Assembly (NCBI RefSeq): GCF_009730915.1
Contig: NC_052482.1
Location: 19,250,345-19,314,344 of the forward strand
Reading direction: 5' to 3'
Origin: Dioscorea cayenensis subsp. rotundata
Taxonomy: Eukaryota > Streptophyta > Magnoliopsida > Dioscoreales > Dioscoreaceae
Length of the DNA: 64,000 nt
The notes below the pieces were generated by a model. The model saw only the letters and a program-made list of their open reading frames with translations. It had not been told where the DNA came from and searched no databases. Positions 3,070 to 60,160 of this stretch are shown in pieces. The position numbers and the translations under genes are program-made. Within the stretch, counting starts at the first letter, position 1. Each line of letters begins with the position of its first letter.

Positions 3070-6000
3070 ATGGGAAAATACATGAAGAAAACCAAGGCCG
3101 GCGGCGAGGTAGCGCTCATGGAGGTCGGAAACCAGTCCTCCCTTGGCGTCAGGACCAGGGCACGCACTCTCGCACTCCAGCGTCTCCAGAAGCCCTCTGA
3201 TTTGTCGTCTGATCCACCTTCGCCGTCTTCATACCTTCAACTTCGAAGTCGCCGCCTTGAGAAAGGCTGTTGCTGACTCTTGCCCTAAGCTTAACCCTAG
3301 GGGTAGAGCTGCTGCCGCTGCAGCGGCGAAGTCGGTGTCTGTTGGCTCTGTCTCGCTGAGTTCTTGCAGGGATGAACCTTCGCTGGAGATTGATGGCGGC
3401 GTTGAGGTTTCGTTTGGGGAGAATGTTCTTGAGGTTGAAGAGAGGGATAGGTGGGTTTTCTTCGTGTTTTGCTGATTGTTTTGCTTGTAAAGATTAGGGT
3501 CTGGTCTTTGTTTTGATTCAAGTGATGGGTTTTCGTTTTTTTCTGTTTTTTTTTAATCTTTGGGTACATTAGGGTTTCGTTGTCTGATTTTTTGGGGGAA
3601 AAATTGAAATTTCTAGGGTTTGTAAAAGGTGATTTGGTTTCTTTTTGTTTCAATTGCTAAAAACTTTGGTTTTTCTTTTGCAGAAAGGTTCTTTTTTTAA
3701 TGTATTTTTGTTTACCTACGTGCCTAGTTTCTTTATTTTTTCCTTTTTTAATCTCAGGATTCTTTTGCTTTTTTTGGATTTAGGTTTCTATAAATTTTTG
3801 GTTTTCCTGAAATCCATCAATCAAAATGGCCTTTTTGGTGTTTTTTTGCTTGAAAATAACCATTTTTCACAACAGTGTTGTATATTGTCAGGTAAATGAT
3901 TTTCCTTGAGCTTTTCATGCTAATCTAAAATTTTCAGGTAAATGTTTCAAAGTTGTTTTACCAGTTCCTTGCCATAAATGGTTTCAAAGTCCTAATATTT
4001 TTTATTGCTAGGGTTTTCTCAAGCATGTTTTCAACATCATGCATGGATTCCACTTGGAGTTTGTGTAGGCTTTTCTTCTTCTCTCAGGCTGTATGAGTTC
4101 ATGTTCATCTCTTTTCGTGAATTCCTTCTTTTTATCTTTATTTCCACACTTGCTAATAATCTCTAGCACTGCAAGAAGTCATTAATGTAGGGCCGCTATC
4201 TTTTGCTTGAAATTGTTATATTTGTCTGTCTTGGTGAGACTCTGATGCTGTGTGAAAACGAGAATGGTTTCATTCACTTCTTTCATTGTCATGTGTTCCT
4301 TTGTTTGATGTTGTTGGAGCAAGAGTTCTCCTTGCATTGCTTCCTTATAGCCCTACCCTCGTCATGTCAAGATTTATGAAGTTATGTCTTGTGTCTTCAG
4401 CATTAGGGAGACTCTGTGCTGTTTCTGTTAACATGGGTCCTGGAGGCCCCCCTTCCTTTGATGATCATTTATGTCTTGTTGCTGGATTTTCTTCATTTCA
4501 GTAAATCCTAAATTAAATGCAAGCACCTATTTTTTTACTGTAACTGACTGCTTGTTTGTGTTGCCTTCTCTATCTAGTCCATTGTTCCTTCAAGCTTTGA
4601 AAGTGGGTTTTTGATTTAGTCTATAAAAGCATGACTCAATCAGCTAAATGCATTTAGTCTGCTGTTTCCTGATCATTTTAGTTGTATGAAAAAAATTGGA
4701 TGAAATTTGCATTAGTGCAACCATTGGTACAGAGTACACAGTACTCTGTGGTACATGGTAATGACTCTTTCTTTTTGTTTCTTTGTTTGGTATGAAGGTC
4801 AAGTAACACTTTGGTCTGTTGTCTGTGTTGCAACCTTTTGCATTGTCCGTTTAGATGTCGGCTTGGGATTAGCTTAACCAGGAGGAACATAAGCTGACAT
4901 GATGTTTGTTGATTGGTATGCTAAGAAGTGCAAGTTCTCTTGATAGTGATGGTCATGGTGTCTATGGCACATTGACTTGGCTTGGTAGTAGTTGTGGACC
5001 AGTTTCTCGTTGTGCCGATGAATTAAGGTCAGGTCCACACACAAATTACACAAAAATTCATATGAAGTGACTTAGATCATAAGGCTATCCAGGGTGTTGC
5101 CTGTTGTAGCTATGTGGCCATTCTTTCAATTAGATATCTTTGCCTTATTTTGGTAATTGTCCAATTTGATTTAAACATTCTTATCTGATGTTATGCAAAA
5201 AACCTTTTCTATGTGATCATTAAGTTGTCCTCATGTGTTCTAGTCTGATTTGATCTCAAGTATTCAAGTGTTTTCCCTCTATTTTTTCAGATTTTACCAC
5301 GTGAACAATCATATCAATTCAGAGATGCTCATGTGACTTAAATTTTTCAGTACTGCCTTTGTTGCTTTCTCTGCCCATTGACATGCATAAGGTCAAAATT
5401 TTGTCCTACTGGTCTTCATCTTCATAACTAGATATTTGAAATGGATACGTTTCAAACTTGTTTTACTGGTTTCAATGATGCTCTTTTGGTTGCATTTATT
5501 TGTTTAGAAGGGAATGGACTACACTTCTTTATTATGTACCTTTTGCTTAGATCTTTAATCTTATTAGGATGAAAAGGCTTACTCCCATAAATCATACGGA
5601 CTCAATTTATGGACAGTTGGTAAATGGGGTGAAATTATAATAATAATGATTTTTAATAAATTACTATTATTATTATTTATGTGAGAGTGCTAATGGTAAG
5701 GCTGTTTACACTTCTAATTGCAGGAGTGCAAGGGAAACAACACCATGCAGTCTGATAAGGAATTCAGAAACAATAGGAACTCCTGGTTCTACAACTAGAG
5801 TGTCCAACTCAGGTGTATCTAGTCGAAGGATACTGAGTTCAAGTCGTCGGAACTACCCAACTACTCATGAGATGGAAGAGTTCTTTGCCAGGGCAGAAGA
5901 ATTACAGCAAAGGGTCTTTATGGAGAAGTATACACTCCATAACAATCCCAATATAATTCTTTATTTGCTTGATAGTAGATGTCTGAGAAAAGATTGCATA

Positions 6001-6120
6001 ATCTTAATTCCTGAAACCTTTTGTTTGTTTTTGTTAACCTTCCTTTGCAGGTATAATTTTGATCCGGTAAACGATTTACCGCTTCCCGGCCGATATGAAT
6101 GGGTGAAACTAGACGCCTGA
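3070..6120 (+). CDS. KRP: cyclin-dependent kinase inhibitor, KRP/ICK family (frameshifted in exon 1)
   Basis: Exons 3070-3450, 5724-5927 and 6051-6120, all with GT-AG introns. KRPs bind CDKA/cyclin D complexes in the nucleus and inhibit the cell cycle. Conserved KRP blocks are visible: the N-terminal MGKYMKK, then [16 protein letters not shown], then [12 protein letters not shown], and the C-terminal kinase/cyclin-binding box [20 protein letters not shown] joined across the last intron to [20 protein letters not shown]. About 217 aa when read through, usual for the family. The reading frame breaks at AAA 3262-3264: as written, translation stops after RLEKGCC, whereas with two A the frame continues [12 protein letters not shown] into the alanine-rich linker. 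Identity is certain; the exact paralogue is not. Confidence 0.9.
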
Positions 6121-59400: not shown

Positions 59401-60160
59401 CTTGGAATGAGTTTGAGGAGAGGTTGAGGTACTGAAGATTAACCAAACTTGTTGCCAAGTTATCAGGTATAGGTCCAGAGAAATTGTTTTGTGATAGATC
59501 AATGAATGTTAGATTAGTACAATTGAGGATGAAGGATGGGAATTCTAATGTGAAGCTGTTTAAGAAGAGTGAAAGATAAGTCAATGAAGGCATGGCTTTG
59601 AACTTGGAGAAATCTGGAGTTTCTAAGTAATTGGAGCTGAGATCAAAGTGTTGTACCTTTGGGAGATAGCTAAGCTGATATGGTAATTCTCCGATCATGT
59701 TGTTGTTATAAAGACGGAGATCGACAAGGTTCGTGAGCTGACCGATCTCCTGTGGCACTGTTCCATTGAAACTATTGCTGCTTAGATCCAATGAAGTGAG
59801 CTTGGAACTAGCAGAGATGTTTCCAGGGATTGAACCGGTGAGCACGCTGTTGCTGATGTTGAGTTTAGTGATATTTGATAGAGAGGAGAAGTCTAACTCA
59901 TCCAGATTGCCATTGAGGTTGCAGTTGGGCAAGTTGAGCTCAACAATGCTGCCGGCCAAGTTGCAGGTGACACCAAACCATTGGCAATGGTTTGTGGAGT
60001 TTGTTAGATTCCATGAATTCAGAGAATCAGGATTGTTCAAGCTAGACTTCCAGTTCAGCAAAGCTTCTGCTTCTGTTTTTGCATGGCATTTCAAGGACAA
60101 GGATGAGATGAATATAAATATGAAGATGAAGAGTTGGATTTGGAATTGGATTGAGGTCAT
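56414..60160 (-). CDS. LRR receptor-like kinase, MIK2-like (about twelve frame breaks)
   Basis: Exons 56867-60160 and 56414-56781 (minus), about 1215 aa after correction. It resembles MDIS1-INTERACTING RECEPTOR LIKE KINASE 2 / At1g35710-type kinases of the plasma membrane. Seen in order: signal peptide ([20 protein letters not shown]), LRRNT ([16 protein letters not shown]), twenty or more plant LRRs (LxxLxLxxNxLSGxIPxxI), a transmembrane helix ([20 protein letters not shown]), then the kinase: [32 protein letters not shown] (RD type), DFGTAK, IAPELAYT across the intron, and [13 protein letters not shown]. Frame breaks (plus coordinates): 59368-59371, 59243-59245, 59138-59141, 59105-59108, 59075-59079, 59037-59039, 58967-58969, about 58503-58508, 58139-58141, about 57833-57842, 57710-57712, 57500-57504. 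Ten are single extra bases in homopolymers; two are net +2 (or -1). All conserved kinase residues are present. Confidence 0.85.

What the first reader, a model, noticed from the sequence alone, without database searches (positions are those of the whole stretch)
3262..60160. Window-wide +1 homopolymer frame breaks in conserved genes
KRP (1), DExH1 (1), BARD1 (2), CER1 (1), INT (1), CESA4 (1), MO1 (7) and the LRR kinase (12 sites) all show frame breaks, and every unambiguous one is a surplus base, mostly 2->3, 3->4 or 4->5 in a homopolymer. After removal, every gene's summed exon length is divisible by three and matches the family length. I saw no clear single-base deletion. Random decay would give insertions and deletions alike plus nonsense changes; an insertion-only bias points to residual long-read errors. 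The load is very uneven: one or two in most genes, 7 in 1.2 kb of MO1 and 12 in 3.6 kb of the kinase. That would fit short-read polishing failing in multicopy families.
Basis: partly seen in the sequence, partly recalled or inferred. Interest (0 to 1): 0.75.

Follow-up and report, generated by a model that had tools for sequence, protein, structure and literature searches.

The report
Assembly errors posing as broken genes
Eight plant genes here look broken because the assembled sequence carries single surplus letters, nearly all in short runs of one base; the same one-sided error turns up in other genes of this genome, so these are very probably assembly mistakes and not real gene damage.

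Summary
I placed 27 frame breaks in the eight named genes (KRP 1, DExH1 1, BARD1 2, CER1 1, INT 1, CESA4 1, MO1 7, LRR kinase 13). 26 shift the frame by +1; one shifts by 2 and reads as a doubled TG. I found no deletion, though KRP, DExH1, BARD1 and CER1 were read by frame only. 23 of the 26 single surpluses can be read as lying in a homopolymer. Decay is contradicted: the densest stretch (7 surpluses in ~415 bp of the kinase) still changes like a selected gene against a neighbouring paralog (dN/dS 0.31; codon-position changes 15/4/29), and the kinase and MO1 frames hold no stop. A second MO1-like copy 6 kb away shows real decay: both signs, two stops, no first exon. In an unrelated family (GRAS) the 7 clean breaks found were all +1, in similar contexts. 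So residual, insertion-biased consensus error is well supported. The added idea of polishing failing in multicopy families is not: kinase copies 94-97% alike have open frames, while the broken kinase's nearest copy is 87% alike and MO1 has no DNA match above 71% longer than 200 bp. Kinase relatives elsewhere carry both signs. Published nanopore work reports homopolymer overcalling. Not a biological feature.

The parts
3262..3266 (+). KRP (CDK inhibitor) surplus base, AAAGG (A 2->3 or G 1->2)
   Evidence: frame reading, shift +1; gene name taken from the finding, no Pfam hit on the 5' piece
13331..13335 (-). DExH1 surplus base, GGGTT (G 2->3 the likely reading) in SGETGCGKT
   Evidence: frame reading, shift +1
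16160..16165 (+). BARD1 surplus base in GGGTTT (2->3)
   Evidence: frame reading, shift +1
18121..18125 (+). BARD1 surplus base in CCTTT (T 2->3 or C 1->2)
   Evidence: frame reading, shift +1
32325..32327 (+). CER1 surplus base in TTT (2->3)
   Evidence: frame reading, shift +1
35276..35278 (-). INT (inositol transporter) surplus base in AAA (2->3)
   Evidence: shift +1; frame-aware alignment from exon 2 on to the C2 paralog
45436..45438 (+). CESA4 surplus base in TTT (2->3)
   Evidence: shift +1; joined exons match PDB CESA chain 8vi0
46377..46383 (+). MO1 site 1, ATCAGGG, surplus A, C or G (run not certain)
46780..46781 (+). MO1 site 2, GG (1->2) at exon 3 start
   Evidence: read from the letters; shift +1
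46793..46796 (+). MO1 site 3, AAAA (3->4)
47488..47490 (+). MO1 site 4, TTT (2->3)
47540..47542 (+). MO1 site 5, AAA (2->3)
47580..47582 (+). MO1 site 6, CCC (2->3)
47806..47810 (+). MO1 site 7, TTTTT (4->5)
59375..59378 (-). LRR kinase site 1, AAAA (3->4)
59243..59245 (-). LRR kinase site 2, TTT (2->3)
59138..59141 (-). LRR kinase site 3, TTTT (3->4)
59105..59108 (-). LRR kinase site 4, TTTT (3->4)
59075..59079 (-). LRR kinase site 5, AAAAA (4->5)
59037..59039 (-). LRR kinase site 6, GGG (2->3)
58967..58969 (-). LRR kinase site 7, TTT (2->3)
58505..58509 (-). LRR kinase site 8, shift of 2, read as doubled TG (TGTG)
   Evidence: shift 2; read as +2 from contiguous LC-x-GF in L038, L040, L044
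58139..58141 (-). LRR kinase site 9, TTT (2->3)
57838..57840 (-). LRR kinase site 10, TTT (2->3)
57830..57833 (-). LRR kinase site 11, CATG, surplus base not in a run
57710..57715 (-). LRR kinase site 12, GGGAAA (G or A 2->3)
57500..57504 (-). LRR kinase site 13, AAAAA (4->5)
   Evidence: aligner prints -2, equal to +1 modulo 3; shift 1
56417..60178 (-). MIK2-like LRR receptor kinase gene, 2 exons, with the 13 surpluses and no stop
   Evidence: LRR and kinase Pfam hits; PDB MIK2 chains among the matches; alignment to L037
46311..47887 (+). MO1-like FAD monooxygenase gene, with the 7 surpluses
   Evidence: alignment to a reference from C10 paralogs; family name from the finding, no Pfam hit on the 89-aa piece tested
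53860..55884 (+). second MO1-like copy, decayed: internal control
   Evidence: 7 frame steps of both signs, 2 stops, match starts at reference residue 91; no exon-1 match for it anywhere in the window

Best explanation
The breaks are consensus errors of the genome assembly, not features of the plant's DNA. During long-read assembly and polishing the length of short homopolymers (mostly 2 to 4 bases) was overcalled by one base at some sites; where later correction did not reach, the surplus stayed. Shown here: one-sided sign, homopolymer context, a per-run rate that rises with run length, retained codon constraint, open frames in several paralogs, the same +1 breaks in unrelated genes of the genome. 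Inferred: that the assembly is long-read at all, that the step responsible is homopolymer-length inference (overcompensation), and that the dense patches in MO1 and the kinase are local blocks that correction skipped.
For: 26 of 27 sites +1, one shift of 2 read as +2, no deletion found. 23 of 26 single surpluses readable as runs (assignment by me). Rate per run in kinase+MO1, from my site list and the run counts: about 0.1% for runs of 1, 1.1% for 2, 2% for 3, 9% for 4. Kinase against L037 in the block with 7 surpluses: dN/dS 0.31, position changes 15/4/29; break-free block before it 0.345, 29/21/54. No stop in the kinase or in MO1's exons. MO1-b shows the opposite pattern. Elsewhere in the genome: 7 of 7 clean GRAS breaks are +1, letters checked for each; two HSP70 breaks +1; one +1 in the C2 INT paralog, on a reference that I joined from its two frames. 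PMC7500977 (passages): nanopore polishing introduced more insertions than deletions, mostly homopolymer overprediction, perhaps overcompensation.
Against: No reads could be mapped, and neither species nor platform is shown by any search. Nanopore assemblies are more often reported as deletion-biased (PMC12007338, PMC7092973; passages). Eleven kinase loci on C12, C846 and C2 carry both signs: 16 insertion-type and 11 deletion-type steps, some at uncertain 5' ends; near-identical pairs there differ both ways. The break-free kinase block just after the dense one shows weaker constraint (58730-58959: dN/dS 0.48, changes 10/6/10), and in 57480-58330 dS was saturated, so constraint could not be judged there. 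The GRAS and HSP70 counts are small and rest on capped tables.
Confidence: 0.93

Rival explanations
1. Real pseudogenes: the kinase and MO1 lost function and decayed, the single breaks in other genes being ordinary loss alleles.
For: Both genes belong to families with decayed members (MO1-b; L042 and L046 with a stop each). Breaks are concentrated in them. The kinase block 58730-58959 shows weaker constraint than its neighbours.
Against: No deletion and no stop among 20 events in the two genes; only 4 of 48 changes at second codon positions in the block holding 7 breaks, so few neutral substitutions can have come with them; insertions mostly in runs of 2-4 bases; conserved genes such as CESA4 and DExH1 carry the same change.
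Confidence: 0.04
2. Residual error concentrated where multicopy families defeat short-read polishing.
For: The load is highest in two family genes; one kinase relative on a small unplaced contig, L039, is broken while its 98.8% twin L040 is open.
Against: L038 and L044, 94-97% alike, are unbroken, and L037 and L040 have long open frames; MO1 has no DNA match above 71% longer than 200 bp; genes with one break and GRAS genes show the same change.
Confidence: 0.1
3. Programmed or tolerated +1 frameshifting during translation, or transcript slippage that removes the surplus.
For: 26 of 27 shifts have the same sign.
Against: 13 shifts in one gene; contexts are short runs of any base with no shared motif that I could see; the paralog L037 does without them. 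I know of no such plant system (recall, not searched).
Confidence: 0.005

Closest known systems
Homopolymer-length overcalling in nanopore assemblies (Courtine et al. 2020, author name recalled; PMC7500977, passages seen)
   Same: More insertions than deletions after polishing, homopolymer overprediction, frames broken in conserved genes, uneven between genes
   Different: That study is a fungal long-read assembly; here platform and pipeline are not shown
Gene-fragmenting indel errors in long-read assemblies (Kastor paper, PMC12007338, passages seen)
   Same: Short indels, many at homopolymers, that imitate pseudogenes; relatives reveal them
   Different: Their main nanopore example has mostly false deletions; these are all insertions
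Plant pseudogenes of clustered gene families
   Same: Kinase and MO1 are members of such families, and MO1-b is one
   Different: No deletions found, no stops, codon constraint retained

Membership tests
Residual long-read consensus error (homopolymer overcall) | Single-base indels concentrated in homopolymers | tested here: met
   23 of 26 single surpluses readable as runs of >=3, surplus included (assignment by me)
Residual long-read consensus error (homopolymer overcall) | Consistent sign across unrelated genes and chromosomes | tested here: inconclusive
   window 27 of 27 insertion-type; GRAS 7 of 7 clean breaks +1; but 16 insertion-type and 11 deletion-type steps in eleven kinase loci
Residual long-read consensus error (homopolymer overcall) | Codon constraint unaffected by the breaks | tested here: met
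   dN/dS 0.31 in the densest block; break-free blocks beside it 0.345 and 0.48; not measurable in 57480-58330. Kinase only
Residual long-read consensus error (homopolymer overcall) | Accurate reads lack the surplus base | not testable with these tools
   no reads available
Pseudogene decay | Insertions and deletions both present | tested here: not met
   no deletion in kinase, MO1, or INT from exon 2 on; met in MO1-b
Pseudogene decay | Nonsense changes | tested here: not met
   no stop in the kinase or in MO1's exons; two in MO1-b
Polishing failure by multicopy mapping | More similar copies are more broken | tested here: not met
   L038/L044 (94-97%) unbroken, L037 and L040 open; MO1 has no near copy; L039 is broken beside its 98.8% twin L040

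The most novel reading that the evidence does not exclude
The surplus bases are real and reflect a recent insertion-only slippage mutagenesis at very short homopolymers in this plant lineage, striking genes faster than selection removes them.
Probability: 0.015. Interest if true: 0.85.

Novelty: not a real feature. Interest (0 to 1): 0.15.

Why it matters
Gene-loss claims, annotation gaps and 'pseudogene' calls taken from this assembly may be wrong for a sizeable share of genes: 7 of about 45 GRAS places in a capped table carry a clean +1 break.

Tried and rejected
Tried: looking for an allelic copy of the broken stretches; the genome searches for the kinase, MO1 and KRP stretches returned no near-identical second place. 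Near-identical kinase pairs elsewhere were compared instead and differ in both directions. Looked for a software fingerprint in all window DNA: A/T runs have an odd excess at length 7 (n6 102, n7 88, n8 15), weaker in 118,872 bases of other loci (128, 83, 31); no other plant genome was at hand to calibrate it, so it is only noted. Papers: in PMC7749330, the assembly paper thought likely, the words nanopore, Flye, Pilon, polish, long-read and contigs do not occur in the main text, which points to its supplement; supplements were capped at 0 and not tried. My paper searches showed no listed paper that describes this insertion bias in this assembly; I read passages of seven papers only.

Rejected: pseudogene decay, multicopy mapping, programmed frameshifting (see rivals). 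A C8 HSP70 gene that looked broken in the table, and that my notebook counts as broken, proved to have an intron and no break. GRAS: 10 split genes; 3 dropped, C9:2985067 (160-base gap, shift 1), C5:1316601 (gaps, shifts 0 and 2), C19:26243495 (in frame). Of the 7 kept, three rows list stops inside (C15:1310905 three, C18:22689591 one, C15:1259804 one), so some may be decayed; partial matches without a second half were not examined. HSP70: split rows with many stops or gaps were not counted; one such copy, C18:22567451, has shifts 1 and 2. KCS: C1469:45813 overlaps a second match with shift 1 and stops, letters not fetched; other splits have gaps, and C2:23510001 is a decayed copy. The Fisher test used 13:7 for kinase relatives, a hand count that left out events at uncertain ends; the automatic count is 16:11. 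In MO1-b two of seven steps print as -2 and could be +1, so deletion-type steps are 3 to 5 of 7.

Full report
What the window is. The window is plant nuclear DNA. The tool places it at G000:C12:19250345-19314344 of a 584,211,761-base genome in 2249 contigs. The size and the chromosome-sized contigs fit white Guinea yam, Dioscorea rotundata (TDr96_F1 v2), which I recall as a nanopore assembly; no call shows the species or the platform. Two papers that bear on that assembly were looked at in abstract or passages only (PMC7749330; PMC9010478).

Checking the breaks. I wrote a protein-to-DNA aligner that allows introns and frame steps of either sign at nearly equal cost. The reference for the kinase is L037, a neighbouring paralog about 18 kb away on the opposite strand (87% identical over 1.4 kb; 1100-residue open first-exon frame). 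The kinase shows 13 frame steps: 11 printed +1, one +2, one -2, which is +1 modulo 3 and reads as a fifth A in AAAAA; no stop. With introns switched off for exon 1 the result is the same. With more distant references (L038, L040, L044) the aligner skips the dense block with a false intron and lists fewer steps. Against a reference from C10 paralogs MO1 shows six +1 steps and a seventh read from the letters at the start of exon 3. One MO1 intron (46945-47028) is missing in the C10 copies but has GT-AG ends and a counterpart in MO1-b. Frame reading around each of the 27 sites gives shift 1 at 26 and shift 2 at one. The last reads as a doubled TG: L038, L040 and L044 have contiguous LC-x-GF there. 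INT from exon 2 on has one +1 and no other step. CESA4's exons, joined in their own frames, match solved CESA chain 8vi0 over query residues 1-80 and 95-980. DExH1, BARD1, CER1 and KRP were read by frame only.

Chance. 26 of 26 single-base steps in one direction has p=3e-8. By my assignment 23 of 26 lie in a run of three or more, surplus included, against 17% for random and 48% for neighbour-copying insertions. In the kinase 7 sites fall within 415 bp (p=0.01), and the load differs among genes (p=3e-4, with approximate CDS lengths that I supplied).

Decay or error? If the kinase had lain unused long enough to gather these steps by mutation, neutral substitutions should be plentiful. In the block with 7 surpluses (58960-59380) it differs from L037 at 15 first, 4 second and 29 third codon positions, dN/dS 0.31. 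The break-free block before it gives 29/21/54 and 0.345; the short break-free block after it gives 10/6/10 and 0.48; in 57480-58330 dS is saturated; the kinase domain gives 0.185. No stop occurs in the kinase or in MO1's exons. The window supplies its own control: a second MO1-like copy at 53860-55884 has seven steps (two +1, three -1, two -2 that could be read as +1), two stops, a match that begins at reference residue 91, and no recognisable first exon in the window. That is decay; MO1 itself is not like that.

Is it local? It does not seem so. In the GRAS family, mostly without introns (recall), 56 matches fall in about 45 places; 10 are split. Three were set aside for gaps or being in frame; the other 7 shift by +1. 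Letters of all 7: by my reading four are a 2->3 run, one 4->5, two not in a run. Three of their rows list stops inside, so some of these may be decayed. Two HSP70 genes show +1 (C12:21283420; C5:7064856), as does the C2 INT paralog on a reference that I joined from its two frames. Against this, eleven kinase loci on C12, C846 and C2 carry 16 insertion-type and 11 deletion-type steps, and near-identical pairs there differ both ways. Some of those may be real pseudogenes, or the error is not insertion-only everywhere.

Why these genes? The copies say otherwise: L038 and L044 are 94-97% alike over two blocks and unbroken, and L037 and L040 have long open frames (L040 with one -1 placed near its uncertain 5' end), while L039, 98.8% like L040, is broken. 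MO1 has no DNA match above 71% longer than 200 bp. I favour local blocks with poor long-read depth or too many initial errors for short reads to align; this was not tested.

Mechanism. Nanopore errors are usually described as deletions (PMC12007338, PMC7092973; passages). One study found the reverse after polishing: more insertions than deletions, homopolymers overpredicted, perhaps because polishing tools overcompensate (PMC7500977, passages). That fits the sign, the context and the rise of the rate with run length seen here, whatever the pipeline.

Verdict. There is no biological feature to explain. Its use is as a caution for anyone reading gene loss out of this assembly.

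Noticed in passing
window 53860-55884 (+): A second MO1-like gene copy, decayed, with long TA-rich stretches inside it; not mentioned in the finding.
   Followed up: yes
whole window: A/T homopolymers are oddly frequent at length 7 and scarce at 8 (n5 323, n6 102, n7 88, n8 15); weaker in other loci of the genome. May be a run-length fingerprint of base calling or polishing.
   Followed up: partly
G000 C12:19503-19543 kb and C12:19762-19784 kb (L038, L040-L047): Kinase loci in these two stretches pair up at 94-99% identity (L038/L044, L041/L042, L043/L047): a recent segmental duplication, or both haplotypes placed on one chromosome.
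   Followed up: no
L037 2380-2730: The paralog has a tandemly repeated LRR segment with a 72-base period (93-97% alike) in a region where the window kinase aligns poorly.
   Followed up: no
window 29587-30456 (-), and by resemblance 48521-49329 (-), 62782-63468 (-): zf-RVT reverse-transcriptase fragments, LINE-like (Pfam hit for the first only).
   Followed up: no
L063 ~1485 (INT paralog on C2): One +1 frame step of the same kind in a paralog.
   Followed up: partly
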